From an uncultured Chlorobiaceae bacterium (GTDB lineage: Bacteria; Bacteroidota; Chlorobiia; Chlorobiales; Chlorobiaceae): a stretch of DNA of 32,893 bases. The stretch lies in assembly GCA_903822595.1 (NCBI GenBank), contig CAIJPS010000038.1, forward strand, positions 1 to 32,893, in the 5' to 3' direction. The translations under genes were made by a program, and so were the position numbers. Under the pieces are notes generated by a model. It did not search any database and was not told the origin of the DNA. It saw only the letters and a list, made by a program, of their open reading frames with translations. The stretch's first letter is position 1. Each line of letters starts with the position of its first letter. This document shows, piece after piece, positions 2,137 to 30,070 of the stretch.

Positions 2137-2586
2137 CTATGGAAGAACATTGACGAGAACTCGAAAACGGGCAATGACTGAAGCATCCCCCTCCCATGAG
2201 CGCCATTGCTTGAGCAATATTTCTCCTCTACCACTCTTTTTCCCCTGAAAGATGAAAACAACATTACCACCGGAACCAACAACAGCAGTCTTTGGATAAT
2301 GTGATTCGGTGGCCAGCTCGTTCAAGAACGTCCCGTCATAACGTTCAACTACCCAACGGTACCCTGTGGTAGCGTTCTCCGGCAGTGTTATCCTCACCGT
2401 TTCATGCAAACAGATATCCGCCGTACGCTCATTATCCGTTTCAACGAGTTCATGCACCATTTTTTTGCCATTTTGACTCTTAGGACAGGAAACTGCACCG
2501 GGGGAAAAGATAAACCATATACCCACCAGCGCAGTCATTCGCGCAAGGGAGAGAAAATTGGACTTTTGTCTCACAGGCCCTGTCAC
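2137..2586 (-). CDS. Chagasin-family (I42) cysteine protease inhibitor, probable lipoprotein
   Basis: A 149-residue protein. The conserved chagasin loop LPENATTGYRW (about residues 68-78) matches the NPTTGY loop that plugs papain-like active sites in this family. A second conserved segment, FIFQGKKSGRG, fits the later inhibitor loop region. The N-terminus has basic residues, a hydrophobic stretch and AVSC at about 31-34, consistent with a lipoprotein signal, although -3 Ala is not the commonest lipobox residue. Met17 is an alternative start that keeps the hydrophobic stretch. It lies 11 bp downstream of a papain-like protease gene on the same strand, so the two are probably cotranscribed, protease first. 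Family assignment is firm; the partner protease is inferred from adjacency. Confidence 0.85.
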   Translation of the reverse strand: MTGPVRQKSNFLSLARMTALVGIWFIFSPGAVSCPKSQNGKKMVHELVETDNERTADICLHETVRITLPENATTGYRWVVERYDGTFLNELATESHYPKTAVVGSGGNVVFIFQGKKSGRGEILLKQWRSWEGDASVIARFRVLVNVLP

Positions 2587-2597
2587 AGGAATCTGCT

Positions 2598-3416
2598 TCA
2601 GATTGTTATGCCGTAGTTGTCGTTCTGGAATCCGGCATTGATGTAAGCTTCGCTGGCGTAGGCATAACCGTTTTCTCCCCAGTCAGTCCCCCAGCTATTG
2701 CGAACGATAAAGCGCTTGTCGGCAGTATAGCCTACAATGGCGATGCAGTGTCCACCGCGAACCGTGGCGGGCTTAAAAACATCAAGTTTGCCATGAGTTG
2801 CTTTTGCGTTATCCCAGGTTTCATCCACATTAACACCAGCCACGATGGGGCCATGGGCAGCAAGCCAGAGGCGCCAATTAACAAGATTTTTTCCGAGATT
2901 GAAATATCCTGCGATACGTCGCGTTGCGGCTGTGGCATAGAACGTGCTCTCCTCTCCAGTATACATAACGGTAGAAATATGGAATGGCAGCACCGCATCG
3001 GTTACAGCACCGTATTTTTTCAGGATAGTGAGCGCTGCGTTGGCAAAGGTGCCAGATGACTCAATGACGGTTGTCGGATGAGCCGTATACACGTCACTCT
3101 CTTTTGCTCCCATCCAGGAGTGACGAACCGACAGAAGCTCATTTGGGCCAAGTCTTCCAGCTTTCACAAAATGGTAACGGGCAACACCGTCGGTGGTTCC
3201 CCAGCCGACACAGGAACCAGTATTTTCCTGGTCACCAATCTTCCACCAGCTATCGTCGCGCAGATCAACGCTTGCAGGCAAGGTTGCAGGTAAAGAGGCA
3301 ATGGCTTTGGCTTCGAGAGCAGTTTCTATCTGCCAATCCCTTGTGGTATCGTGACGGGCAGGCAACAGATTGCATATACGACCTGCTTCAGCTCTTTTCG
3401 TCTGTTTTACAGTCAT
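2598..3416 (-). CDS. Papain-like C1 family cysteine peptidase
   Basis: A 272-residue protein with the full papain catalytic set: oxyanion Gln63 and nucleophile Cys69 in DQENTGSCVGW, His223 in GGHCIAIVGY and Asn240 in RNSWGTDWGENGYAY. The segment before Cys69 includes the PASVDLRD element typical of the mature C1 start, so residues 1-45 would be a very short propeptide-like leader. I see no hydrophobic signal peptide, so it is either cytoplasmic or exported another way. The start is supported by AGGAGA about 8 nt upstream of the ATG. It is first in a two-gene unit with the chagasin inhibitor, which suggests the cell guards against its own protease. Bacterial C1 peptidases are scattered, and the substrate is unknown. 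Confidence 0.88.
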   Translation of the reverse strand: MTVKQTKRAEAGRICNLLPARHDTTRDWQIETALEAKAIASLPATLPASVDLRDDSWWKIGDQENTGSCVGWGTTDGVARYHFVKAGRLGPNELLSVRHSWMGAKESDVYTAHPTTVIESSGTFANAALTILKKYGAVTDAVLPFHISTVMYTGEESTFYATAATRRIAGYFNLGKNLVNWRLWLAAHGPIVAGVNVDETWDNAKATHGKLDVFKPATVRGGHCIAIVGYTADKRFIVRNSWGTDWGENGYAYASEAYINAGFQNDNYGITI

Positions 3417-3695
3417 AACTTGTTCTCCTTTTTTTTATGAGAGCACCAGGGATATCATTCTACATAAGCCACTTGTAATGCAGCAATATAAAGCATCTCC
3501 CCTGCTTTTCTGAAGTGTTTTTGTGAATTTTAACGTATACAGAGAGTTAATATGCGGATATTTTTCTGTATAACAATTGCTAATTTTTCAACCGGAGAAT
3601 TGCGCGCCAACCCCGTAGCGATATTGTCTCGAATGCAGAACAATCCGTGTGTTTTCAGCGGGAAAGCTGTGACTCTACTGCTGTATGGCGTTGGT

Positions 3696-8767: not shown

Positions 8768-9319
8768 TTATACCGCAAAATTGTTTACCCATGAGACATA
8801 TTTGTTCATCCAGTTTTGGAGGAATGTTTTGCTCTCGGCACCAATATTGCCAGCATCATCAAACAACCCGTCCTTGAGCTGGATAAACGCTTCAGGTTGA
8901 GCCAGAGTCGGCACATCAAGACTTGCGAGAATGTTACGCAAATGCTGCTGTGCCAAAGCGGTGCCCATGGTGCCGACCGAAACACCTAAAATACCAGCAG
9001 GTTTACCTTCCCAGGAGTTCTGGCCATGTGGACGAGAACCGTGGTCGATTGCGTTTTTGAGAACACCCGGTATTGAGCGGTTATATTCTGGCGTAACAAA
9101 CAAAAGGCCATGGGCCGACTTTATTTCAAATTTTAACCGCTTGACGGATTCGGTCTGATTGTCATCATCATCCTGATTATACAACGGCAGGTCGCCGATT
9201 TGTAACTGCTTGAATGACAATTCCGGATGTTCCAGCATTCCAAGGGCAGTTGCCAACTTACGGTTTAATGAATCCTTGCGAAGACTGCCAACGATGACAG
9301 CTATTTGGTATTTGCTCAT
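8768..9319 (-). CDS. NADPH-dependent FMN reductase family protein, copy 1
   Basis: A 183-residue flavodoxin-fold reductase. GSLRKDSLNRKLA (11-23) is the phosphate-binding loop for FMN and PEYNRSIPGVLKNAID (77-92) is the family signature. Relatives reduce FMN, quinones, chromate or azo dyes with NAD(P)H as soluble cytoplasmic dimers; the substrate here is unknown. It is nearly identical (about 90%, roughly 19 differences) to the gene at 12309-12860, and similarity continues ~15 bp past the stop codon, so it is a recent duplication. It is convergent with the peroxidase gene. Confidence 0.9.
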   Translation of the reverse strand: MSKYQIAVIVGSLRKDSLNRKLATALGMLEHPELSFKQLQIGDLPLYNQDDDDNQTESVKRLKFEIKSAHGLLFVTPEYNRSIPGVLKNAIDHGSRPHGQNSWEGKPAGILGVSVGTMGTALAQQHLRNILASLDVPTLAQPEAFIQLKDGLFDDAGNIGAESKTFLQNWMNKYVSWVNNFAV

Positions 9320-12292: not shown

Positions 12293-12860
12293 GAACCTCC
12301 GGTTATTGTTATACCGCAAACTTTTTCACCCATGTGACAAACTTGTTCATCCAGTTTTGGAGGAGTGGTTTGCACTCGGCACCGATATTGTCAGCATCAT
12401 CAAACAACCCGTCCTTGAGCTGTATAAATGCTTCAGGTTGAGCCAGAGTTGGCATATCAAGACTTGCGAGAATGTTACGCAAATGCTGTTGTGCCAAAGC
12501 GGTGCCGATGGTGCCGACCGAAACACCTACAATACCAGCCGGTTTACCTTCCCAGGAGCTCTGGCCATGTGGACGAGAGCCATGGTCGATTGCGTTTTTG
12601 AGAACACCCGGTATTGAGCGATTATATTCTGGTGTAACAAACAAAATGCCCTGGGCCGACTGGATTTCAAATTTAAACCGCTTGACGGATTCGGTCTGAT
12701 TGTTATCGTCATCCTGATTATAGAGCGGCAGGTCGCCGATTTGTAACTGCTTGAATGACAATTCCGGATGTTCCAGCCTTTCAAGTGCAGTTGCAAGCTT
12801 GCGGTTTAATGAATCTTTGCGCAGGCTGCCAACGATAACAGCTATCTGGTATTTGCTCAT
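12293..12860. repeat. Duplicated segment matching 8752-9319
   Basis: The FMN reductase coding sequence plus ~15 bp beyond its stop (AACCTCCGGTTAT) is shared with 8752-9319 in the same orientation. The two direct copies are ~3.5 kb apart and bracket the Lmo0937, CsbD and Nramp genes. Recombination between them could delete that block. Confidence 0.8.
12309..12860 (-). CDS. NADPH-dependent FMN reductase family protein, copy 2
   Basis: A 183-residue paralogue of the gene at 8768-9319, with the same FMN loop GSLRKDSLNRKLA and signature PEYNRSIPGVLKNAID. The roughly 19 substitutions cluster in surface-like positions and near the C-terminus (for example NNFAV becomes KKFAV), while both motifs are untouched, so both copies look functional. 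It converges with the Nramp gene, with a 27-bp gap. The substrate is unknown. Confidence 0.9.
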   Translation of the reverse strand: MSKYQIAVIVGSLRKDSLNRKLATALERLEHPELSFKQLQIGDLPLYNQDDDNNQTESVKRFKFEIQSAQGILFVTPEYNRSIPGVLKNAIDHGSRPHGQSSWEGKPAGIVGVSVGTIGTALAQQHLRNILASLDMPTLAQPEAFIQLKDGLFDDADNIGAECKPLLQNWMNKFVTWVKKFAV

Positions 12861-18573: not shown

Positions 18574-20139
18574 ATGGCAAACAACAACGGTAATGGAAAA
18601 TCCCTCGAATCCTGGATCTGGGATGCGGCATGTTCCATCCGTGGCGCCAAGGATGCTCCGAAGTACAAGGATTTCATCCTGCCCCTGATCTTTACCAAGC
18701 GGCTGTGCGATGTCTTCGATGATGAGGTCAACCGAATCGCAGGGGAGGTCGGTTCGCGCATGAAGGCTTTCCAGCTCGTCAGGGCCGATCACAAGCTGGT
18801 GCGCTTCTATCTACCCCTCGTGCCCGAAGACCCGGATGAACCGGTCTGGTCGATCATCCGCAAACTCTCCTTCAGGATCGGCGAAGGCGTCACCACTCAC
18901 ATGCGCTCCATCGCCAGGGAAAATCCGCTGCTGCAGGGTATTATCGACCGCGTCGACTTCAACGCCACCACGCATGGCCAGCGGGATATCGACGACGACC
19001 GTCTCTCCAATCTTATCGAAGCCATCAGCACCAAGCGTCTCGGGCTTAGGGACGTCGAGGCCGACATCATCGGCAAGAGTTACGAATACCTCATCCGCAA
19101 GTTCGCCGAAGGCGGCGGTCAGAGCGCGGGCGAGTTCTACACACCACCCGAAGTCGGCACCATCATGTCGCGCGTGCTTGCGCCCGAATCGGGCATGGAG
19201 ATCTATGATCCCTGTTGCGGTTCCGGCGGCCTTCTTGTTAAATGCGAGATTGCCATGGAAGAGCTGGCCAAAGGCAGGGCGCGCACCGTCGCCCCGCTCA
19301 AACTCTACGGCCAGGAGTACACCGCCGACACCTGGGCCATGGCCAACATGAACATGATCATCCACGATATGGAGGGTCAGATCGAGATCGGCGACACCTT
19401 CAAGAATCCCAAATTCCGAAACAAACAGGGCCGGCTCCGCACCTTCGACCGAGTCGTCGCCAATCCCATGTGGAACCAGGACTGGTTCACCGAGGCCGAC
19501 TACGATAACGACGAATTTGACCGTTTCCCCGCAGGGGCTGGATTCCCCGGCAAATCCTCCGCCGACTGGGGCTGGGTACAGCACATGCACGCCAGCCTTA
19601 ACGAAACCGGCCGTGCCGCCGTTGTTCTCGACACCGGAGCCGCCTCCCGAGGCTCGGGTAATGCCGGAACCAACAAGGAAAAGAGCGTCCGCCAGTGGTT
19701 CGTCGACCACGACATCATCGAAAGCGTTCTCTACCTGCCCGAAAACCTCTTCTACAACACCACCGCTCCGGGTATTGTGCTGTTCCTGAACAAGGCGAAG
19801 GCAAAAGAGCGAGAGCGCCGCGTGCTGCTCGTCAACGCCAGCAAGATTTTCGAAAAGGGCGACCCCAAGAACTTCATTCCGGACGAAGGCATCCGGCGCA
19901 TTGCCGAAACCCTGACGGGCTGGAAGGAGGAGGAGAAGCTCAGCCGCATTGTCGATCACGCCGAGCTGAAGAAAAACGACTTCAACATCTCTCCCAGCCG
20001 CTACATCCACACCAGCGACGCCGAAACCTACCGGCCGATTGCCGAGATTGTCGAAGAGTTGAACGCCATTGAGCTGGAGGCCAAAGAGACCGACGAAGCC
20101 CTGCGGATAATTCTCAGGCAACTGGGAGTCGGAGCATGA
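18574..20139 (+). CDS. hsdM: Type I restriction-modification DNA methyltransferase subunit HsdM
   Basis: A 521-residue N6-adenine methyltransferase that should form the M2S core with HsdS. The N-terminal HsdM helical domain (about 10-150) is followed by GEFYTPPEV (187-195), the AdoMet motif DPCCGSGG (212-219) and the catalytic motif IV as NPMW (297-300) rather than the usual NPPY/F. NPMW recurs, as far as I recall, in one HsdM subfamily, so activity is likely kept. It is the first gene of a run with overlapping junctions (ATGA with the next gene). High G+C and a long antisense open frame mark it off from the lower-G+C neighbours on both sides. Confidence 0.95.
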   Translation: MANNNGNGKSLESWIWDAACSIRGAKDAPKYKDFILPLIFTKRLCDVFDDEVNRIAGEVGSRMKAFQLVRADHKLVRFYLPLVPEDPDEPVWSIIRKLSFRIGEGVTTHMRSIARENPLLQGIIDRVDFNATTHGQRDIDDDRLSNLIEAISTKRLGLRDVEADIIGKSYEYLIRKFAEGGGQSAGEFYTPPEVGTIMSRVLAPESGMEIYDPCCGSGGLLVKCEIAMEELAKGRARTVAPLKLYGQEYTADTWAMANMNMIIHDMEGQIEIGDTFKNPKFRNKQGRLRTFDRVVANPMWNQDWFTEADYDNDEFDRFPAGAGFPGKSSADWGWVQHMHASLNETGRAAVVLDTGAASRGSGNAGTNKEKSVRQWFVDHDIIESVLYLPENLFYNTTAPGIVLFLNKAKAKERERRVLLVNASKIFEKGDPKNFIPDEGIRRIAETLTGWKEEEKLSRIVDHAELKKNDFNISPSRYIHTSDAETYRPIAEIVEELNAIELEAKETDEALRIILRQLGVGA

Positions 20140-20498
20140 TTTATAACAATGCAACAAGATTAAATAGGGCCCAGTCAGGGGCCCAGTTGGCACCAGGTTG
20201 GCACCAAGCTACCGGAAAAGTCACGTCACCAGTCACGGCACCAGTGGGGGAATATGTCACTCGACACCTTGTTTTACTGGCAGATCGTGCCGCCCTTTCC
20301 AATGCCAATATTCTCGAAGCCTTCGGCCTCAAAAGTCGCCGACGGCTCCGTGACACGTACATCGATCCATCCCTTGCTGAGGGACTGGTTGAGCCGACCA
20401 TCCCGGAAAAACCTACCAGTCGCCTCCAGAAATACCGGCTCACAGAAAAAGGCCGCAGATTGCTGGAGCAGTTGGGCAAAGATGGAGGCCGGTCATGA
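20136..20498 (+). CDS. Winged-helix protein resembling the Fic C-terminal domain
   Basis: A 120-residue protein. Residues about 40-115 (LADRAALSNANILEAFGL through SRLQKYRLTEKGRRLLEQ) match the winged helix seen at the C-terminus of many Fic and AAA/DUF proteins, with a YIDPSLAEGLVEPTIPEKP core. There is no Fic catalytic motif. It overlaps hsdM and hsdS by ATGA at both ends, so it is made with the methyltransferase subunits. It may be a regulator or accessory of the system; the function is not known. Confidence 0.75.
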   Translation: MIYNNATRLNRAQSGAQLAPGWHQATGKVTSPVTAPVGEYVTRHLVLLADRAALSNANILEAFGLKSRRRLRDTYIDPSLAEGLVEPTIPEKPTSRLQKYRLTEKGRRLLEQLGKDGGRS

Positions 20499-21898
20499 AC
20501 GTTATCGAGTATACCGGACAGGTAGAGGCCCATGAGCCCCAAGTCACCCATTCAGTCACCATGCCATGCGGGTTGGAAAACACGCTCTCAGTTGAAAGAG
20601 ATTCTGGAGGTGGGGGAGGTATAAAGTTTGAAGAAATTCGATTTCCGTCCGACTGGAGACTCAGTCCTATTGCAGAGTCGTTCGACTTTACAAAGAAGCC
20701 TCGTTCTCTCGACCTTTCGAAGAATGGAGATGAAATCCCATTCTTTCCAATGAATCAAATCCCGTTGGGGCGCATTCACGTTTCTGAGTTTACGTCTAAG
20801 CCACTGGTAGAACTCGGAAGCAGCACCTACGTCGAAAATGGCGATCTAATGGTCGCAAAGATCACACCATCGTTCGAGAATGGTAAGCAGGCTATTGTAG
20901 ATATTGAGACGGACTTCGCTTATGCTACGACCGAGGTGATTCCGATGCACGGCAGGAAAGGGGAATCGGATACGCTCTTCTTGTTTTTCTATCTTTTGCA
21001 TCCTGAAGTGAGGGCTGACCTCGCGGGCAAAATGGAGGGCAGCACGGGGCGGCAGCGTTTGAGTAAAACAGTTCTTGGCGACCGATTGATTCCACTCCCT
21101 CCACTTCCCGAGCAGAAGAAGATCGCGCACATTCTTTCAACGGTGCGGCGGGCGATCGAAGCGCAGGAGCGGATCATTCAGACCACCACCGAGCTGAAAA
21201 AGGCTCTCATGCACAAGCTCTTCACCGAAGGTATCCGCAACGAACCCCAAAAAAAAACCGAGATTGGACTCGTGCCGGAGAGTTGGGATGTGGCGGAATT
21301 GGGTGCGCTGGCCAAGGTTGGAAATGGCTCAACACCCAAACGGTCGAATCAAGCCTATTGGGAAGGGGGAAACATTCCGTGGCTGAACAGCACCAAGATA
21401 CACGACAGATTCATCACCGAAGCTGACCAATTCGTGACACCACATGCCATCAAGGAGTGCCACCTTCCAAAAGTAGCCTCGAACAGTCTGTTGATTGCGA
21501 TCACCGGTCAAGGAAAAACACTCGGCAATTCAGCGATCACCCGGATTGAGACCTGTATCAATCAGCACCTTGCCTATGCCCAGTTTTACTCAGCGAAGAT
21601 TGTTCCGGATTTCGTGTTGTGGTTCATGCAGACACGTTATGACTACCTCCGCTCTATTGCTCACGGAGGAGGAAGCACGAAAGGCGCTCTGACTTGCAGT
21701 TTTTTGAAGACACTCCCGATACCAATTCCATCGACGGACGAGCAAGAGGAGATAGTTACAACGTTTCATGCACTTGATGAAAAGCAGGGCTTGGCTGTCG
21801 CCAAACAGATAGTTCTCCAAGACCTTTTTCGTACTCTCCTTCACGAACTGATGACCGCGAATGTTAGAGTGGTCTCAACAATCGAATCAACCGAATGA
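20495..21898 (+). CDS. hsdS: Type I restriction-modification specificity subunit HsdS
   Basis: A 467-residue protein with two target-recognition domains (about 45-200 and 275-425), each followed by a helical conserved region. The first conserved region has LPPLPEQKKIAHILSTVRRAI then a coiled helix; the second has IPIPSTDEQEEIVTTFHALDE. The first ~45 residues are a low-complexity leader rich in Gly near 39-43. It determines which bipartite DNA site HsdM methylates and HsdR cuts. GGAG lies upstream of the ATG that overlaps the previous stop. Its own stop overlaps the SIR2-APAZ start (ATGA at 21895-21898). Confidence 0.93.
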   Translation: MNVIEYTGQVEAHEPQVTHSVTMPCGLENTLSVERDSGGGGGIKFEEIRFPSDWRLSPIAESFDFTKKPRSLDLSKNGDEIPFFPMNQIPLGRIHVSEFTSKPLVELGSSTYVENGDLMVAKITPSFENGKQAIVDIETDFAYATTEVIPMHGRKGESDTLFLFFYLLHPEVRADLAGKMEGSTGRQRLSKTVLGDRLIPLPPLPEQKKIAHILSTVRRAIEAQERIIQTTTELKKALMHKLFTEGIRNEPQKKTEIGLVPESWDVAELGALAKVGNGSTPKRSNQAYWEGGNIPWLNSTKIHDRFITEADQFVTPHAIKECHLPKVASNSLLIAITGQGKTLGNSAITRIETCINQHLAYAQFYSAKIVPDFVLWFMQTRYDYLRSIAHGGGSTKGALTCSFLKTLPIPIPSTDEQEEIVTTFHALDEKQGLAVAKQIVLQDLFRTLLHELMTANVRVVSTIESTE

Positions 21899-23673
21899 CG
21901 AGTTCCGATCAAGATCAGGCAAAGAGCGAGTTCATTTCGCATTACGTGCAGAATGCCCCTCAAATGATTTGGTTTCTGGGAGCTGGAACGTCGCGGACTG
22001 CTGGAATGCCAACGGCCAGCGATATTACGTGGGATATGAAGCGTCGTTATTATTGCCTTCAGGAAAATCAGGATATCAGGTCTCATGACCTGAATTACAA
22101 AGCCGTTAAACAACGGATTCAGACGTATTTTGACAGCCAAGGATTCCCAGCACTGTGGAGTGCCGAAGAGTATTCGTTCTATTTCGAACTAACATTTGGG
22201 AAAGATTACGCTGCGCAGCAGAAATATCTGGCAGCGAAGTTGTCGCACCAAAACGTTTCCTTGAACATCGGTCACCGTGCACTCGCCGCGTTGATCGATT
22301 TGGGGTTAACAAGGATGGTATTTACGACCAACTTTGATGAAGTGCTTGAAGCAGCATTTTCAATTGTAGCGGAGAAAAACCTGACAGCTTTCCATCTGGA
22401 AGGTTCATACGCAGCACTTGAAGCTTTGAACGCGGAACACTATCCAATCTACTGCAAGCTTCATGGTGACTTTCGGTATCGGAGCGTCAAAAATCTATCG
22501 GATGACTTGCGCGATAATGATAAACAGATTGAAAAGTGCTTTTTAGCAGCGAGCAATCGCTTCGGAATGGTCGTCAGTGGATACAGCGGACGTGACACTA
22601 ATGTGATGGCAATGTTTCGCTCCGCACTTGAACAATCGAATCCCTTTCCTCAAGGCCTTTTTTGGACTACGACCTCTCTTTCTCTTGTTTCCGATCAGGT
22701 GCGTGATTTGGTAGCCTATGCGCAGGACAAGAATGTGAGAGCTGAGATAATTGAAACAGGAACGTTTGATATCATGTTATCGAAAATCTGGAGGCAAGTG
22801 TCGTCCCGAAGCGATAAGCTGGATGCGAAAGTCCGAACAGCCGCTGCAAAACCAGTATGCATTCCGCGTTCTCAAGAAGGAGTGAAATACCCGATTTTAC
22901 GGATGAATGCTCTGCAGATTTGTGATCTTCCGGAAACCTGTGGATCGATTGAATGCCAACCAGTATTAGGCTTTAGCGAGTTGAATAAAACTGTTCTAAG
23001 CTTTCGACCAGACGCAATCATCACAGTTATCGAAAAAATTTTGTTTTGGGGCAGTTCTGAATCGGTCAGAAAATTTCTCGATGCTGATCGCGTCAAATCA
23101 GTCTCATCTTACCCTTTGTCTGAGACCATCCGATCGAACCCTGATTCGACAGTTTTGCACTCGTTTATTGAAAATGCATTATCTGAAGCCTTGTGCCACG
23201 ACAAGCCATTGATGCTTCGCAAAAAAGGCCGAAGGTATTTTGCAGTTGTAGCTCACGAAGAGATTGGCGACCCGCGACTTGACGCTCTGAAGGAAGCCGT
23301 TGGATTCAGAAACTCACTCGGCACTATTGTTGGCAACATTCCGGGGAATGCGAATATATTTTGGGCTGAAGCACTTGAAATGAAGGTTGATCACCGGGAC
23401 GGAAAATGGTGGCTTTTGGTCGAACCTGATATTTGGGTATCGCCTCTTTCCGAAAGAGAGAAGGTTTTAGATTTTCTAAGGGACAAGAAGTCGAAACGCT
23501 ACAACGGGCAGGCCTTCAACATGTTGAACGCTTGGATTCAACTGCTTTGTGGCTTTGTTGGACATAGTGAAAAAACCATTTTTGCAACATGTTATGGAAA
23601 GACGGACTATCCAGCCCAATTTGGGGTAAACACGAGGACTGCGTACAGTCGAAGAGGGGGGAGAAATGGATAG
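21895..23673 (+). CDS. SIR2-APAZ NAD-hydrolase effector of a short-Argonaute (SPARSA) system
   Basis: A 592-residue protein. The N-terminal SIR2 domain has all NAD-site motifs: [11 protein letters not shown] (29-39), TTNFDE (144-149, Asn146/Asp148), LHGD (189-192, His190) and GYSGRD (229-234). From about residue 330 to the end the protein has no SIR2 features and fits the APAZ domain, the N/PAZ-like partner of short Argonautes; this part is assigned by context and length. In studied SPARSA systems the SIR2-APAZ/Ago pair, loaded with guide RNA, senses invader DNA and depletes NAD(P), killing or arresting the cell. It overlaps hsdS by ATGA and pAgo by 8 nt. Fusion and residues look intact. Confidence 0.9.
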
Positions 23674-25090
23674 TTTTTCTGCCCAACTTTCTGGACATTT
23701 CGCCTTGCCGGAGCCACCGCTCCTGTTTGCAAAAGGTCACAGGGGTTTGCATCCTCTTCGTGGATTGCTCGAAGCAGGCCCTTATGGCGTTGACCTCGGC
23801 TTCCCTATTAAACTGCGACTTGCATATTTAGCCCCAAGTGATTTGCTGCTCCGCCTTGATTCGTTTGTTTTGGAACTGTCGAGGCCAGCTCAGCCGAAAG
23901 AAGCATTGAACTATTACCCAGAATATCCAGGGTTTGAACCGCTTTTCCAGATACCTTTGGTTAAGCCACCGGAGGGCCTTCGATGTTCGACAAATCCTGA
24001 ATGTTTGGGGTTGGCGCAACGCCAAAGCGGTCCCGACTTGGTTAATTCGATTCTCCATTCGATGGTTAGCCTCATACGTCAAAAGCAATCATTCGATGTG
24101 GTTGTCTTGTATTTGCCAAGTTCTTGGTCAACATGCTTTGAGTATGATGGCTTTAACTTGCACGACTGTTTGAAAGCGAGATTGGCACCTCTGAATATTC
24201 CTGTTCAAATCGTGAACGATACTACGTTTGAGCGCCGTTGTCGGGCAAATGTGATGTGGGGAATTAGCGTTGCCCTTTACGCAAAGGCTGGAGGAATACC
24301 TTGGAAGCTTGCCGACTGTGACAAGGACGAAGCATATATTGGTCTTAGCTATGCAATTAAGAAACATTCAGACGGTAATGAGTATTCGACATGTTGCAGT
24401 CAAGTTTTTGATCCTGACGGAACCGGTTTCGAATTCATGGCTTACGATACTCGCGAGTTCACCCTTGATCGGAAAGGGAACCCATATCTGTCTTATCAGG
24501 AGATGCAGTCTGTTTTATCCCGAAGTTTGCTCTTGTATCAGAACAGTCATAGTGGGCGCGTTCCGAAGAAGCTCTTCGTACACAAGACTTCGCAGTTCAC
24601 AGAGGAAGAGATTCAAGGGGCCTATGATGCGATTGGATCTGCGACTGAAATTGAACTGATTCAGGTTATTCAGAGAAGTAGATGGTTTGGGTTGAAAATC
24701 GATGGGCCAAAGTTCCAGCAGAACAAGCCGGAACCAGCTTTGTATCCGATTGAGCGAGGTGTTTACCAACCAATCAGCGAAAACGAGTGTTTACTTTGGA
24801 CCCAAGGTAGTGTTGCTGGAATCAATCAACAAAAGGAGTCTCAGCCAGTTTTTAAGGAAGCTGCGTTGAAGCCTCTTCCAAGGCCTATAGTGCTTCGTAG
24901 GTTTTCAGGGGATGGTGGTTGGCACAGCACCTGTTCGAGTGTGCTCGGCCTTACTAAAGTAGATTGGAACAACAATACCCTATATAAAACTCTTCCCGCT
25001 ACATTGGTTTATTCAAAGGTATTCGCCGATGTCGTGAAGTTTTCTCCTACAATCGCGAACGATACTTATGATTATCGATTCTTCATGTAG
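23666..25090 (+). CDS. Short prokaryotic Argonaute (MID-PIWI), catalytically inactive
   Basis: A 474-residue MID-PIWI protein with no N or PAZ domain. The MID guide 5'-phosphate pocket fits the His-x3-Lys type: His166, Lys170, Gln181 and Lys207 in [12 protein letters not shown], by analogy with AfPiwi Tyr/Lys/Gln/Lys. The PIWI part starts at IGLSYAIKK (225-233), where catalytic Argonautes have Asp, so the DEDX slicer set is broken as in other short pAgos. [13 protein letters not shown] (304-316) and the C-terminal [12 protein letters not shown] (429-440) are PIWI landmarks. It overlaps the SIR2-APAZ gene by 8 nt, with a GGGGGAG ribosome site inside that gene. It should bind guide RNA and target DNA, and trigger the SIR2 partner. 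Confidence 0.93.
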
Positions 25091-25104
25091 ACAAAAGATT
25101 CACC

Positions 25105-25341
25105 ATGCCCACACCCTCCGAACATAAAACCGTCCAGGTCCGCATTCTTGCCCACGCGCAAGAGATTAGCTGGACTGTTTTGCTCCGCGAAGAGGCCGAA
25201 GGATGGCGAGGGTTTGATCCAGAGATGCCGCATCGACGATGGCCGTTTTCCAATTTGAAACTCACGAACAAACGAAATGATCATCATGAACATCTTCATC
25301 ACGAACGACATCTTGATTATCACTTTCATCGACAACTCTGA
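25105..25341 (+). pseudogene. Truncated duplicate of the hsdR 5' end
   Basis: Starts MPTPSEHKTVQVRILAHAQ, nearly the same as the intact hsdR at 27149. DNA similarity runs from 25105 to about 25230, then stops; the remaining frame (His-rich, HHEHLHHERHLDYHFHRQ) is not HsdR-like and ends at 25341. No nuclease or helicase motif remains. It lies 14 bp after the pAgo stop, so it marks the right edge of the SPARSA insertion. Confidence 0.8.
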
Positions 25342-25371
25342 CTTTCAATCGAATCAAGCGATCACCTAAAC

Positions 25372-26859
25372 ATGGCAGCTAAACCGAAATTTAATTCTCG
25401 CGAGCTGATGGAGAATGCCATCGCAGCAATGAAGCAATCGATCAGTGAGCCGCGCGTGGACGGAGATGTGACACCTAAAGTGGGCGCGGCTCTTTGGAAG
25501 CCGGACGGAACCATCGAGACTGCTTTCCGTGGCGAACTGCGATATGGAGATCATGCGGAATTCACGTTGCTGGAGCGGAAGAATCGGTCAAATGCCCTTG
25601 ATAGTTGCATTCTGTTTGCTACTCTTGAACCCTGCGCTCCCGGAGCTCGGAACCATCCGAAGCTGAGTTGTGCTGAGCGTATCGTGAATGCCCGAATCAA
25701 GGAAGTCTGGGTCGGTTGTCAGGATCCACATCCAAAGGTGGCTGGAAAAGGATTTCGGTTTCTTAAAGACAAAGGTGTCATTGTTCATTTCTTTGACCGT
25801 GACCTGCAGGAGGTGATTGAAAAGGAGAACGATGAGTTTTTCAGGCAAGCCCAAGCCGCAGCCGAAAAACAGAAGCACGAATGGACGCCAGCCATAGCAG
25901 AGTATGACAAGGTCATGCAGGACGTTGATGTTAATGATTTGTGGTCGGATGCTCTTAACAGCTATGAACTTATGCTTATGGGCAAAGGGCGCCACAAGGA
26001 GGATGAGTTTTATCGGAGGCTTTGCCATCAAGGGTTGCTCGAAAAGGTAAAAGACAAGATTCGCCCGACGGGTTTTGGCCTGCTCTTGTTCGCCCGGCAT
26101 CCTCGTGACATGATGGCCCAGGCAGGAATTCTTGGCTCTATCTTCAAAGATGGTAAGGACGAACTGAAAGATTTTGATGGACCGATGGTTCTCGCACCGC
26201 AACAGACGATTCAATGGCTCCGGGACAAATTGCCAAATCCGATTTTACGGACGGAGGCGCAACGTAAAGAGCAGAACGAAATTTATTATGAGCTTATTCG
26301 AGAAGGGGTGGTGAATGCCCTCGTTCATCGTGATTATGGAATCAAGCAAGCTAAGATTCAGCTTGTGGTGACAGAGGAGAAAACGGTGATCCGTAGTCCT
26401 GGAACGCCTATGGAACCGGTCACCTTAAAGCAGTTGCAGGAATTTAACGCTCCAATGTTCAGCCGAAATCCGAGGCTTCATGCGGTTTTCAATACTATGG
26501 AGTTGGCCGAGGAACGAGGGTTTGGGCTGCGCTCAATGAGGGATCGTGCTCAGCAAGCCGGACTGCCTCTTCCAAGTTATGCATGGAATGAGCCCTATCT
26601 TGATTTGACGATATATCGGACGGCTGAAAGTGCGACGAAAACATTAGATGAAGTCATTCTCACAGAACTGAATGACGCAGAGAAAAAGGGTTGGTCGTTT
26701 ATAGTGAGCTCAGGAACTACAACTCAAAGTGAATATGCTCGGGAAATGGAGGTTACGCCACGCACGGCGCAACGGCATTTGTCCCATTTCGTAGATCTGG
26801 GATTGCTTCAGCGAATAGGGAGTGGGCCAGCTACAACATATCAGGTAATTCAGTCATAA
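25372..26859 (+). CDS. RibD-like zinc deaminase fused to a COG2865-type ATPase and winged helix
   Basis: A 495-residue three-part protein. Residues 1-150 are a cytidine-deaminase fold of RibD type: PKVGAAL (35-41), HAE (61-63, His zinc ligand and Glu proton shuttle), PCAPGARNHPKLSC (Cys88 and Cys100 zinc ligands) and QDPHPKVAGKGF (117-128). Residues about 225-420 match the GHKL-type ATPase region of AlbA/Schlafen-linked COG2865 proteins, with NALVHRDY (315-322), SPGTP (342-346) and ERGFGLRSM (381-389). Residues 445-490 are a winged helix. The usual AlbA domain is replaced by the deaminase. No riboflavin genes are nearby and it sits between defence genes, so a nucleotide- or nucleic-acid-editing effector is possible but unproven. 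No clear ribosome site is seen. Confidence 0.82.
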   Translation: MAAKPKFNSRELMENAIAAMKQSISEPRVDGDVTPKVGAALWKPDGTIETAFRGELRYGDHAEFTLLERKNRSNALDSCILFATLEPCAPGARNHPKLSCAERIVNARIKEVWVGCQDPHPKVAGKGFRFLKDKGVIVHFFDRDLQEVIEKENDEFFRQAQAAAEKQKHEWTPAIAEYDKVMQDVDVNDLWSDALNSYELMLMGKGRHKEDEFYRRLCHQGLLEKVKDKIRPTGFGLLLFARHPRDMMAQAGILGSIFKDGKDELKDFDGPMVLAPQQTIQWLRDKLPNPILRTEAQRKEQNEIYYELIREGVVNALVHRDYGIKQAKIQLVVTEEKTVIRSPGTPMEPVTLKQLQEFNAPMFSRNPRLHAVFNTMELAEERGFGLRSMRDRAQQAGLPLPSYAWNEPYLDLTIYRTAESATKTLDEVILTELNDAEKKGWSFIVSSGTTTQSEYAREMEVTPRTAQRHLSHFVDLGLLQRIGSGPATTYQVIQS

Positions 26860-26862
26860 AAG

Positions 26863-27092
26863 TGACATAAATCATGATGTTGTGTTTCGATGTAATGGTA
26901 AAAACGTATAAGTGGTAGTTATCGCGACATGAATCACGACGCTATGTCGCGATGTAATGGTAAAAACGTATGAGTGGTAGTTATCGCGACATGAATCACG
27001 ACATTATGTCGCGATGTAACGGCAAAAGTGAATAAGTAATAGCAATCGCGACAGTAAATAGTGATTTGTTGACGAAAGTAAAAGCAATGCGG
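26863..27092. repeat. 62-bp tandem palindromic repeat array before hsdR
   Basis: Units at 26863-26925 (diverged, 63 bp), 26926-26987 and 26988-27049 (62 bp each), then a decayed partial unit. Each junction holds a perfect 10-bp inverted repeat ATCGCGACAT-N13-ATGTCGCGAT (26921-26953 and 26983-27015), with a conserved AAAACGTAT or related spacer between. It fills the gap between the deaminase and hsdR. Confidence 0.85.
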
Positions 27093-27099
27093 GTTTCTG

Positions 27100-27105
27100 T
27101 ATAAT
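27100..27105 (+). promoter_or_regulatory. Possible -10 box for hsdR
   Basis: TATAAT, 43 bp upstream of the hsdR start, immediately after the repeat array. The only good TTGAC box (27069-27074) is 25 bp away, too far for a standard promoter, so only the -10 is proposed. Confidence 0.3.
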
Positions 27106-27148
27106 TGCTGCAAAGTATAATTTCAATAAGAGCCTATACGAGAACACG

Positions 27149-30070
27149 ATGCCCACACCCTCCGAACACAAAACCGTCCAGGCCCGCATTCTTGCCTATG
27201 CGCAAGAGATCGGCTGGGCCTTTGTTCCCCTCGTGGAGGCGGAGAGGCGGCGCGGGTTTGATCCGGAGGTGCCTATTGCTGACCGCGCGAGAGGTCGTTC
27301 GCTCTTCTTCGACGAACTGCTCGACGCGAAGGTGCGGGAGTTCAACCCGCGCTATACCGAAGTCGAGGGCTCTTTGCTCGGGCAGTTCCGCCATCTTCAT
27401 GCCGATATTTACGGCAACCGGGAATTTGTGGAGCATCTGCGCAACCGGGGCAAATTCTTCGACCATGAGGAAAACCGCGAGCGCGATCTGATCCTGATCG
27501 ATTATGATAATCCGGAGCGGAACTTGTACGAGGTTACGGAGGAGTGGGCCTTTCACAACGGCCACTATGGCACGCGGGAGGATATCGTTTTTCTCATCAA
27601 CGGCATTCCCGTGCTGGTGATCGAGTGCAAGAATGCCGGCAAGGAGGAGGCGATTGCCCTGGGGGTGGATCAGATCCGGCGCTACCACCGCGAGACGCCC
27701 GAGCTCTTCGTGTCGCAGCAGCTCTTCACTGCCACAGACGCTATCGGGTTTTCCTACGGGGTGAGCTGGAACTCGGTGCGGCGGAACATTTTCAACTGGA
27801 AGGACGGGGAGGTCGGCAAGCTGGAGGCCAAGGTCAAGAGCTTCTGCTCCATCCCGCAGGTGCTGGCCTTCCTGAAGGAGTACATCCTTTTTGCCGAGAA
27901 GGACGAAGAGCTGAACAAATATATCCTGCGCCAGCACCAGACCGGCGCGGTGGAGCAGGTGGTCAGGCGCGCCCTTGATCCCGCTCGCAGGCGCGGTCTC
28001 GTCTGGCATACCCAGGGGAGCGGCAAGACCTTCACCATGATCAAGGCGGCGGAGCTGCTTTTTCGCGCACCGAAGGCGGACAAGCCGACCATCCTCCTGA
28101 TGATCGACCGAAACGAACTGGAAGATCAGATGCTCAAAAATCTTGCTGCACTGGGGCTGGATAATCTGGAACATGCCACCAGCATTGCACGGCTCAACAA
28201 GCTTTTGCGTGACGACTACCGGGGCATCATTGTCACCATGATCCACAAGTTCCGCGACATGCCGCCCGATATCAATACCCGGTCGAACATCTATGTCATG
28301 ATGGATGAGGCGCACCGTACCACGGGTGGTGACTTGGGTAACTTCCTCATGGCCGGTCTGCCGAACGCCAGTTACATCGGCTTTACCGGCACCCCGGTGG
28401 ACAAGACCGTCTATGGCAAGGGGACCTTCAAGACCTTCGGCTGCGAGGATGACAAAGGCTATCTGCACAAGTATTCCATTGCAGAGAGCATTGGTGACGG
28501 CACGACGCTGCCGCTCTACTACGCTCTTGCCCCGAACGAGATGCTGGTGCCGCACGATATCCTCGACAAGGAGTTTCTCTCCCTGGCTGGAGCCGAGGGT
28601 GTGGCTGATATCGAGGAGCTGAACAAGATTCTTGAACGGGCGGTGAACCTGAAGAACTTTCTCAAGGGCAAAGATCGAATAGAGAAAGTGGCCCGATTTG
28701 TTGCAGAACACTACCGTGAGAATGTTGAGCCGCTGGGGTACAAGGCCTTTCTGGTCGGCGTCGACCGCGAGGCCTGCGCACTCTATAAACATGCGCTTGA
28801 TCAGTTCCTGCCAGCCGAATATTCCGAGGTTGTCTACACCGGCAACAACAATGACTCTGCGCTGCTCAAGGAGTTCCATCTCGATCCCAAAAAGGAGCGG
28901 CAGATTCGCAAGAGTTTCGGCAAGCTTGGCCAGCAGCCGAAGATCCTGATTGTCACAGAGAAGCTGCTCACCGGGTTCGACGCGCCCGTGCTCTATGCGA
29001 TGTATCTCGATAAGCCGATGCGCGACCATATCCTGCTGCAGGCCATCGCAAGGGTGAACCGTCCATACGAAAACGAGATGCTGGAGATGGTGAAGCCGCA
29101 CGGTTTTGTGCTCGATTTTGTGGGTATTTTCGACAAGCTGGAGAAGGCGCTCTGTTTCGACAGCGAAGAGATTAATGCCATCGTGAAGGATATCAAGCTC
29201 CTGAAAGTGCTGTTCCGGAACAAGATGGAGCAGCAGGCCCCTGAGTATCTCGGGCTGATTGAACGGAACTTTGACGACAAGGATGTCGATACCCTGATTG
29301 AGCGCTTCCGCGATCCGGAACGGCGCAAGGCGTTTTTCAAGGAGTACAAGGAGATCGAGATGCTCTACGAAATCATCTCACCTGATGCCTTCCTACGCCC
29401 CTTCATCGATGATTACAGCACACTTTCGGCGATGTATGCTGTTGTGAGAAATGCCTATACGAGGCGCGTTATGGTCGATCGCGTATTTCAGAGAAAGACC
29501 AGTAAGCTGGTACAGAAGTATGTCGGAACCAGTTCCATTCATCCTGTCAGCGAAATTCTGGAAATCAACGAGGAGACCATCAAGTATATTGCCGAGCGCA
29601 AAGGCGGAGATGGGAAAAAGGTCATTAACCTGGTCAAGAGTATTGAAAAAATAGCGGAAGATGAGAGCGATGACCCGTATCTGATCGCCATGGCCGAGCG
29701 GGCTCAGGCGGTACAGCAGAGTTTTGAGGATCGCCAGACCAGCACGGCTGATGCGCTGGAGAAGTTATTGAGGGAAGTTGAGGCGAACGAGGCGCGAAAA
29801 AAGGAGCAGGCTGAGAAGGGCTTTGACGGGCTGACCTACTTTGTCTATCGTACGCTCCTTGATGCGAAGATCGAAAACCCGGAAGAGGTGAGCCGCAGGA
29901 TCAAACATGCTTTCATCGAGTTTCCCAACTGGAAGAAGAGTGAAAATTCTCTGCGCGAATTGCGCAAGAAGGTGACCTTCGCCGTTCTGGCCCATAGTGA
30001 TGACATGGAACAGGTGACGGCTCTGGTGAAGCAGCTTTTCAGGCTGCTTGAAAAGGCAAACAGGATATAA
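27149..30070 (+). CDS. hsdR: Type I restriction endonuclease subunit HsdR
   Basis: A 973-residue restriction/translocase subunit. The N-terminal PD-(D/E)xK nuclease has Asp145 (EDIVF) and VIECKNAG (ECK at 159-161). The helicase has Walker A TQGSGKT (288-294), DEAHRT (386-391) and GFTGTPVD (411-418), and motif VI-like AIARVNRPY further on. The C-terminal third is the helical HsdR region that binds the M2S complex. It should cut DNA distant from unmethylated HsdS sites. It is separated from hsdMS by ~5.2 kb of SPARSA, relic and deaminase genes, an unusual split. GAGAA is upstream of the ATG. High G+C, like hsdM. Confidence 0.96.
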   Translation: MPTPSEHKTVQARILAYAQEIGWAFVPLVEAERRRGFDPEVPIADRARGRSLFFDELLDAKVREFNPRYTEVEGSLLGQFRHLHADIYGNREFVEHLRNRGKFFDHEENRERDLILIDYDNPERNLYEVTEEWAFHNGHYGTREDIVFLINGIPVLVIECKNAGKEEAIALGVDQIRRYHRETPELFVSQQLFTATDAIGFSYGVSWNSVRRNIFNWKDGEVGKLEAKVKSFCSIPQVLAFLKEYILFAEKDEELNKYILRQHQTGAVEQVVRRALDPARRRGLVWHTQGSGKTFTMIKAAELLFRAPKADKPTILLMIDRNELEDQMLKNLAALGLDNLEHATSIARLNKLLRDDYRGIIVTMIHKFRDMPPDINTRSNIYVMMDEAHRTTGGDLGNFLMAGLPNASYIGFTGTPVDKTVYGKGTFKTFGCEDDKGYLHKYSIAESIGDGTTLPLYYALAPNEMLVPHDILDKEFLSLAGAEGVADIEELNKILERAVNLKNFLKGKDRIEKVARFVAEHYRENVEPLGYKAFLVGVDREACALYKHALDQFLPAEYSEVVYTGNNNDSALLKEFHLDPKKERQIRKSFGKLGQQPKILIVTEKLLTGFDAPVLYAMYLDKPMRDHILLQAIARVNRPYENEMLEMVKPHGFVLDFVGIFDKLEKALCFDSEEINAIVKDIKLLKVLFRNKMEQQAPEYLGLIERNFDDKDVDTLIERFRDPERRKAFFKEYKEIEMLYEIISPDAFLRPFIDDYSTLSAMYAVVRNAYTRRVMVDRVFQRKTSKLVQKYVGTSSIHPVSEILEINEETIKYIAERKGGDGKKVINLVKSIEKIAEDESDDPYLIAMAERAQAVQQSFEDRQTSTADALEKLLREVEANEARKKEQAEKGFDGLTYFVYRTLLDAKIENPEEVSRRIKHAFIEFPNWKKSENSLRELRKKVTFAVLAHSDDMEQVTALVKQLFRLLEKANRI

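What the first reader, a model, noticed from the sequence alone, without database searches (positions are those of the whole stretch)
2137..3416. Papain-like protease paired with its likely chagasin inhibitor
An 11-bp gap and shared strand suggest a protease-inhibitor unit. The protease has a full catalytic set but no visible signal peptide, while the inhibitor looks like a lipoprotein. That mismatch of compartments is odd if they are true partners. It could be a self-immunity arrangement or a weapon and shield pair.
Basis: partly seen in the sequence, partly recalled or inferred. Interest (0 to 1): 0.55.

Follow-up and report, generated by a model that had tools for sequence, protein, structure and literature searches.

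The report
Papain-like protease with its chagasin shield
A green sulfur bacterium carries, side by side, a papain-like protein-cutting enzyme without an export signal and a membrane-anchored inhibitor of such enzymes; relatives keep the two together and sometimes lose the enzyme while keeping the inhibitor, as expected if the inhibitor is a shield.

Summary
Window 2598-3416(-) encodes a 272-aa papain-family (C1A) protease with the full catalytic set and no signal peptide. Window 2137-2586(-), 11 bp downstream, encodes a chagasin-family (I42) inhibitor with all three inhibitory loops, preceded by a signal peptide and lipobox-like cysteine. The genome is a Chlorobiaceae.

The pairing is conserved. 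In 86 Chlorobiaceae genomes all 16 intact homologues of this protease have the inhibitor next door on the same strand. A second, lectin-fused C1A subfamily is paired with a chagasin in 5 of 5 cases; the other 34 C1A genes in 0 of 34. The pair also lies in a Methylococcaceae contig. Five genomes lack an intact protease (three lack the gene, one has a remnant, one lacks the catalytic cysteine) yet keep the inhibitor; none has the protease without it.

Best reading: a cognate protease-inhibitor unit in which the lipoprotein shields the cell envelope. How the protease leaves the cell is unknown; type VI VipB was not found in any of the 86 genomes. A second cytosolic inhibitor form from a conserved internal Met has no Shine-Dalgarno support.

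Protease-inhibitor operons are known (staphopain-staphostatin, SpeB-Spi, Bacteroides C10-Bti). This is a new variant.

The parts
2598..3416 (-). C1A (papain-family) protease gene, 272 aa, no signal peptide
3425..3430 (-). Shine-Dalgarno AAGGAG of the protease
   Evidence: duplex energy -9.3 kcal/mol
3210..3212 (-). codon of catalytic Cys69
   Evidence: invariant in 20 of 20
2748..2750 (-). codon of catalytic His223
   Evidence: invariant in 20 of 20
2697..2699 (-). codon of catalytic Asn240
   Evidence: invariant in 20 of 20
2137..2586 (-). chagasin-family (I42) inhibitor gene, 149 aa; start may be the second GTG at 2574
2488..2586 (-). signal peptide region of the inhibitor (residues 1-33)
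   Evidence: hydrophobic segment
2485..2487 (-). lipobox-like cysteine (residue 34)
   Evidence: Cys after small residues in 21 of 22 orthologues
2458..2460 (-). conserved internal Met43 at the start of the chagasin domain
   Evidence: 22 of 22 orthologues; aligns with residue 1 of T. cruzi chagasin; no Shine-Dalgarno
2359..2376 (-). inhibitory loop NATTGY
   Evidence: N, A, T, T, G invariant in 19 of 19
2266..2277 (-). inhibitory loop GSGG
   Evidence: invariant in 19 of 19
2194..2202 (-). inhibitory loop RSW
   Evidence: R and W invariant in 19 of 19

Best explanation
A two-gene unit, probably one operon, for a cognate protease and its inhibitor. The protease is made in the cytosol without a Sec signal, probably held back by its conserved N-terminal ~45 residues (inferred from full-length similarity to xylellain and cathepsin zymogens), and does its work outside the cytosol after leaving by an unknown route or by cell lysis (inferred). 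The chagasin domain sits on the envelope as a lipoprotein and plugs the active site of protease molecules, its own or a neighbour's, that reach the periplasm or cell surface (binding inferred from family, loops and linkage). It is therefore a shield: dispensable only once the protease is gone, and possibly useful alone against protease-bearing neighbours. Shown: genes, predicted folds, residues, linkage, lipoprotein-type signal, order of loss. Not shown: co-transcription, binding, activity, location, release, target.
For: All 16 intact homologues in 86 Chlorobiaceae genomes have the inhibitor immediately downstream on the same strand; 0 are without it. In the same genomes the other C1A genes separate cleanly: lectin-fused type 5 of 5 with a chagasin, the remaining 34 genes 0 of 34. 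The inhibitor is kept where the protease is absent (G044, G261, G267), a remnant (G071) or lacks residues 1-112 including Cys69 (G177); on the inhibitor tree these are five separate changes. G177 (99% complete) has no intact C1A gene at PF00112 E<=0.001. Pairwise dN/dS of the inhibitor domain stays low for G261 vs G048 (0.09) and G267 vs G271 (0.21). Lipobox-like Cys in 21 of 22. The pair also lies in a Methylococcaceae contig whose neighbours (NadM-Nudix-like, NarL-type two-component; labels by eye) look gammaproteobacterial. Protease and inhibitor tree distances correlate, r 0.79, 0 of 5000 permutations as high.
Against: The protease has no export signal and no exporter was found: VipB of type VI secretion in 0 of 86 genomes; contractile sheath matches in 35 of 86 genomes but in only 8 of the 17 genomes with a close protease homologue (compared by hand). 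Loss of the protease first is expected of any cognate pair and does not by itself show intercellular immunity. In G044 the deletion also took the usual GTG start of the inhibitor, and its dN/dS to the window is 0.62 on few changes; in G071 the lipobox Cys is gone: these two inhibitors may be decaying. Four of the five inhibitor-only genomes hold another C1A gene that could be a target. Protease data reject the inhibitor's grouping (p-AU 5e-5), so partners have been reshuffled. Close homologues of the protease outside Chlorobiaceae live without a chagasin neighbour. Flanking genes in the window are regulatory or metabolic.
Confidence: 0.5

Rival explanations
1. Housekeeping control pair: the protease serves protein turnover or processing at the envelope of its own cell and the inhibitor sets its level, as with cruzipain and chagasin or Bacteroides C10 proteases and Bti. 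No competition with other cells is involved.
For: Protease-inhibitor co-transcription is described as the norm for Bacteroides C10 proteases, some inhibitors being predicted lipoproteins (PMC3462683, passages). Flanking genes are regulatory or metabolic. Protease under purifying selection, pairwise dN/dS 0.04-0.20.
Against: Patchy presence (17 of 86 genomes), at least five separate losses and presence in a Methylococcaceae contig do not look like housekeeping; no signal peptide on the protease.
Confidence: 0.2
2. The inhibitor mainly blocks foreign cysteine proteases (grazers, other bacteria), as Cip1 of Pseudomonas syringae blocks plant proteases; the neighbouring protease is only co-regulated.
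For: Inhibitor kept in five genomes without an intact partner, one of which (G177) has no intact C1A gene; envelope location; bacterial chagasins against outside proteases are known (PMC5014320, passages).
Against: 0 of 17 close protease homologues in the family are without the inhibitor, and two C1A subfamilies but not the others are linked to chagasins.
Confidence: 0.15
3. Two-compartment antidote: besides the lipoprotein, a cytosolic inhibitor starting at the conserved internal Met43 keeps the signal-less protease silent inside the producer, as described for the Tli immunity protein.
For: A Met lies 7-8 residues before the conserved domain start in 22 of 22 orthologues although the linker before it varies and the spacing shifts by one in four of them; it aligns with residue 1 of T. 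cruzi chagasin. Precedent: PMC10294624, passages. In the lectin-fused pair type the inhibitor has no clear signal.
Against: No Shine-Dalgarno before it: mean duplex energy -2.2 kcal/mol against -2.8 for 1406 ordinary internal ATGs and -8.2 for 16 protease starts. The Met may simply be kept for structure.
Confidence: 0.1

Closest known systems
Bacteroides C10 proteases (Bfp, Btp) with staphostatin-like inhibitors (Bfi, Bti) (PMC3462683, passages)
   Same: Papain-fold protease gene with a small inhibitor gene a few bases away, co-transcribed; btiA 5 bp downstream of btpA; inhibitors exported, some predicted lipoproteins; authors note that one inhibitor may be decaying beside an inactive protease.
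   Different: Protease family C10 with leader and propeptide; inhibitor of another family. Here C1A plus chagasin, and the protease has no leader.
Staphopain-staphostatin and SpeB-Spi operons (as described in PMC3462683, passages)
   Same: Contiguous protease and inhibitor genes; the inhibitor is thought to protect the producer.
   Different: There the inhibitor is cytosolic (that those proteases are secreted is recalled). Here the inhibitor is the one with the export signal.
Chagasin / ICP of protozoa and Cip1 of Pseudomonas syringae (family I42)
   Same: Fold (2nnr Z 14.4) and three inhibitory loops; Cip1 and Pseudomonas homologues carry a signal peptide (PMC5014320, passages).
   Different: No linked protease gene is described in the passages seen; Cip1 acts on a host plant's proteases.
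Xylellain of Xylella fastidiosa (PDB 3ois)
   Same: Best solved relative of the protease by sequence profile (E 3e-16) and by fold (Z 25.8, rmsd 3.2, 247 aligned, 22% identity).
   Different: The genes of the Chlorobiaceae that look xylellain-like (label by eye, frames of 308-388 codons) have no chagasin neighbour, 0 of 33.
Type VI effector with lipoprotein immunity protein, such as Tle-Tli (PMC10294624, passages)
   Same: An enzyme gene paired with a lipoprotein antidote gene; in Tli also a cytosolic form.
   Different: No type VI VipB in 86 of 86 genomes; the enzyme is a protease.

Membership tests
Peptidase family C1A (papain) | Profile match over curated cut-off | tested here: met
   PF00112 65.6 bits against 20.7
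Peptidase family C1A (papain) | Gln, Cys, His, Asn catalytic set | tested here: met
   Q63, C69, H223, N240 invariant in 20 of 20
Peptidase family C1A (papain) | Papain fold | tested here: met
   AF2 model: 3ois Z 25.8; chagasin-bound cathepsin B 3cbk Z 20.0
Peptidase family C1A (papain) | Proteolytic activity | not testable with these tools
   needs purified protein
Inhibitor family I42 (chagasin) | Profile match and immunoglobulin-like fold | tested here: met
   PF09394 71.9 bits against 27.2; 2nnr Z 14.4, 3m86 Z 15.6
Inhibitor family I42 (chagasin) | Loops NPTTG, GxGG, RPW | tested here: met
   N-A-T-T-G, G-S-G-G, R-x-W invariant in 19 of 19; the Pro of the first is Ala here, that of the third Ser
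Inhibitor family I42 (chagasin) | Inhibits C1 proteases | not testable with these tools
   needs an inhibition assay
Staphopain-staphostatin type operon | Inhibitor gene contiguous with protease gene, same strand | tested here: met
Staphopain-staphostatin type operon | Co-transcription | not testable with these tools
   needs RNA
Staphopain-staphostatin type operon | Inhibitor cytosolic | tested here: not met
   signal peptide and lipobox-like Cys
Staphopain-staphostatin type operon | Protease carries a Sec signal (recalled feature) | tested here: not met
   no N-terminal signal-like segment in the 14 protease N-termini examined
Bacteroides C10-Bti pair | Protease of family C10 with a leader peptide | tested here: not met
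   PF00112 match, no leader
Type VI effector-immunity pair | Type VI apparatus in the genome | tested here: not met
   VipB PF05943 in 0 of 86 genomes; control E. coli rings
Known anti-phage defence system | Match to PADLOC models | tested here: not met
   0 families for protease and inhibitor at E<=0.001

The most novel reading that the evidence does not exclude
A signal-less papain-like protease is released by green sulfur bacteria as a weapon against competitors or grazers, and a chagasin lipoprotein is the immunity protein, made in two forms from one gene (envelope form from the upstream start, cytosolic form from the conserved internal Met). Strains that lost the weapon keep the shield as an orphan immunity gene: a polymorphic attack-and-immunity system built on an inhibitor fold best known from protozoan parasites.
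Probability: 0.1. Interest if true: 0.7.

Novelty: new variant of a known kind. Interest (0 to 1): 0.45.

Why it matters
Bacterial chagasins are usually found without an obvious target (recalled), and the one studied in the papers seen here acts on a host plant's proteases. Here the genome itself names the likely target: C1A subfamilies that carry a chagasin neighbour and subfamilies that do not sit in the same genomes, which makes inhibitor specificity directly testable. The reversed compartments (inhibitor with an export signal, protease without) make a simple prediction about where the protease acts, and would point to an unrecognised way out of the cell in green sulfur bacteria.

Tried and rejected
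Internal-start idea: supported by conservation (22 of 22) but not by Shine-Dalgarno strength; kept only as a rival.

Type VI delivery: VipB absent in 86 of 86. Contractile (eCIS-like) delivery: sheath matches in 35 of 86 genomes and in 8 of the 17 protease genomes (G000, G048, G098, G121, G225, G248, G252, G271; of these G048, G121 and G252 are below the family cut-off), so no clear link (comparison by hand).

Anti-phage defence: no PADLOC match. NCBIfam: no match for either protein. Mobile elements: closest plasmid relative of the protease 46% identical, with no annotated inhibitor beside it; the inhibitor domain finds one weak plasmid match; one distant phage record; 279 viral contigs encode related C1A proteins, 80 were fetched, and none of these loci has a chagasin; the inhibitor profile found no viral relative.

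Alternative partner: in G232 the protease gene overlaps a DUF3574 lipoprotein gene by 4 bp, but of 5 DUF3574 genes in 247 genomes only that one is next to a listed C1A gene, so I do not build on it.

Literature: searches gave nothing useful. I found no paper on a bacterial C1A-chagasin operon in searches; of their hits I opened only four (PMC3482391, PMC5014320, PMC10294624, PMC3462683; passages by search term), and most subscription journals are missing from that library.

Promoter and terminator scans were at chance level. The dN/dS values are pairwise, not lineage-specific, and Bio.codonalign is flagged experimental. The paralogue in G094 was left out of the 22 inhibitor orthologues; G177's truncated protease was counted apart from the 16 intact ones; the two pieces of the G032 C1A gene were merged. 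Only one of the five AlphaFold2 protease models was good (mean pLDDT 81, 70, 70, 54, 45).

Full report
Observation. On the minus strand the protease (2598-3416, 272 aa) comes first and the inhibitor (2137-2586, 149 aa) follows after 11 bp. Pfam gives Peptidase_C1 (E 9.1e-18) and Inhibitor_I42 (E 5.3e-20), both over the curated cut-offs. The window is contig 38 of a 3.0-Mb genome. Its family is Chlorobiaceae: the contig of its relative G165 has the length of, and carries the same 85% match as, a record titled uncultured Chlorobiaceae bacterium.

Anatomy. The protease has a Shine-Dalgarno AAGGAG before its ATG and only six codons of open frame upstream, so no signal peptide has been missed. In 14 protease N-termini the most hydrophobic stretch of the first 45 residues begins at residues 25-32 and is weak. 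Q63, C69, H223 and N240 are invariant in 20 rows. The best AlphaFold2 model (mean pLDDT 81; the other four 45 to 70) matches xylellain at Z 25.8 from residue 3 to 272, and cathepsin zymogens at Z 20-23. The conserved N-terminus (I14, N16, D27, W28 invariant) may therefore be a built-in pro-segment; this is inference. The inhibitor has a hydrophobic segment followed by a Cys after small residues in 21 of 22 orthologues. Its domain has the loops N-A-T-T-G, G-S-G-G and R-x-W, invariant in 19 of 19, and is predicted to fold as chagasin (best Z 15.6 and 14.4 to solved amoebiasin-2 and chagasin).

Linkage. Of 86 family genomes, 18 match the protease at E<=1e-8. One, G117, matches only by its distant lectin-fused type. 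The other 17 are close homologues; 16 are intact and G177 lacks residues 1-112. All 17 have a chagasin domain 210-309 bases downstream of the C1A domain on the same strand. Over all C1A and chagasin genes listed for the 86 genomes, 22 of 29 chagasins lie within 2 kb of a same-strand C1A gene, against about 0.03 expected. The 56 C1A genes split into 17 of this type, all with a chagasin; 5 of a ~671-aa type with a C-terminal stretch like the CV39L/BP39L beta-propeller lectins (below those models' cut-offs), all with a chagasin; and 34 others, none with a chagasin. This is a control inside the same genomes. In a wider draw of 247 genomes of the phylum, G231 (another family) has a cathepsin-like C1A gene with a chagasin next to it, and a Deltaproteobacteria contig has a chagasin upstream of a cathepsin-like gene (L063). 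So the adjacency is seen with several C1A architectures.

Outside the family, close protease homologues without a chagasin exist: G146, G232, a Planctomycetales contig and Deltaproteobacteria contigs, and a Microvirga plasmid. The rule that the protease is never without the inhibitor therefore holds for Chlorobiaceae and for the one Methylococcaceae contig (L031), not for the protease at large.

Compartments. The pair types differ. Lectin-fused: neither partner has a clear signal (the inhibitor of three of them has a moderately hydrophobic start that I read as the first strand). L063: both have a signal. G231: the protease has one; the inhibitor frame from its first start codon has none, but further in it holds a lipoprotein-like segment, read by eye. 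The window's type: only the inhibitor has one.

Loss order. Next to the sigma-54 regulator, where the window has both genes, G044, G261 and G267 carry the inhibitor alone; in G071 a stretch matching protease residues 197-269 remains upstream of the inhibitor; in G177 the half with C69 is missing. On the inhibitor tree these five are five separate changes. There is no case of the reverse. If either gene were equally likely to be lost first, five of five has probability 1/32. This says that the inhibitor is needed while the protease is there. That it is kept afterwards for its own sake is supported in G261 and G267 (low pairwise dN/dS) and in G177, which has no intact C1A gene left; it is doubtful in G044 (usual start codon lost, dN/dS 0.62) and G071 (no lipobox Cys). 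The inhibitor domain changes faster than the protease in five of six matched genome pairs (dN 0.077-0.114 against 0.018-0.044; in the sixth, G048-G265, 0.057 and 0.063). Three of these pairs share genomes.

Co-descent. Distances on the two trees correlate (r 0.79, 0 of 5000 permutations as high), but the protease data reject the inhibitor's main group (p-AU 5e-5), while the inhibitor data do not clearly reject the protease's (p-AU 0.09). Both groups were named after the trees were seen. Partners seem to have been exchanged within Chlorobiaceae, so specificity is probably broad.

Internal Met. A Met sits 8 residues (18 sequences) or 7 (4 sequences) before the conserved position that opens the domain (Asp, in G114 His) in all 22 orthologues, though the linker before it varies. 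It aligns with residue 1 of T. cruzi chagasin. A second, cytosolic product would solve the compartment puzzle, as reported for Tli (PMC10294624, passages). But the Shine-Dalgarno test fails: -2.2 kcal/mol on average against -2.8 for 1406 ordinary internal ATGs and -8.2 for 16 protease starts.

Export. Type VI VipB is absent from 86 of 86 genomes; contractile sheath genes do not track the pair. The route of the protease is open.

Known systems. Protease-inhibitor operons of other families are established: staphopain-staphostatin, SpeB-Spi, and Bacteroides C10 proteases with staphostatin-like inhibitors, some of them predicted lipoproteins, which the authors call the norm for Bacteroides (PMC3462683, passages). 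In the survey of polymorphic toxins the papain-like Tox-PL1 has a dedicated immunity family, Imm35, and 'chagasin' does not occur in the text held (PMC3482391, passages). Cip1 of Pseudomonas syringae is a chagasin with a signal peptide that acts on plant proteases (PMC5014320, passages). The present pair joins two known families in a known arrangement with an unusual division of compartments: a new variant of a known kind.

Noticed in passing
window 18574-30070: Type I restriction-modification genes (HsdM, HsdS, HsdR) with a SIR2-type protein (21895-23673), a short prokaryotic Argonaute (23666-25090) and a further ORF (25372-26859) lying between HsdS and HsdR (PADLOC matches).
   Followed up: no
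L101, L102, L103, L104, L105 (G024, G117 twice, G262, G225): A ~671-aa protein of C1A protease plus a beta-propeller-lectin-like stretch, directly followed by a chagasin without a clear signal: a second protease-inhibitor pair type in Chlorobiaceae.
   Followed up: partly
L123:6126-7435 (G232): A homologue of the window protease overlaps by 4 bp a lipoprotein gene of DUF3574: possibly a different inhibitor fold for the same protease type.
   Followed up: partly
G225:C117, G213:C218, G071:C51: C1A genes that look xylellain-like lie 2.7-5.3 kb from contractile-sheath (PF04984) genes on the same strand.
   Followed up: no
L034:1659-3480: A Deltaproteobacteria homologue of the window protease lies 73 bp downstream of a caspase-fold (Peptidase_C14) gene.
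   Followed up: no
window 8768-9319 and 12309-12860: Two similar genes (one cluster), which look like NADPH-dependent FMN reductases (label by eye), flank about 3 kb that include an NRAMP-like transporter ORF (label by eye).
   Followed up: no
Viral contigs, L148-L227: 279 viral contigs encode C1A proteases related to this one; in L148 (41% identical) there is no chagasin beside the gene.
   Followed up: partly
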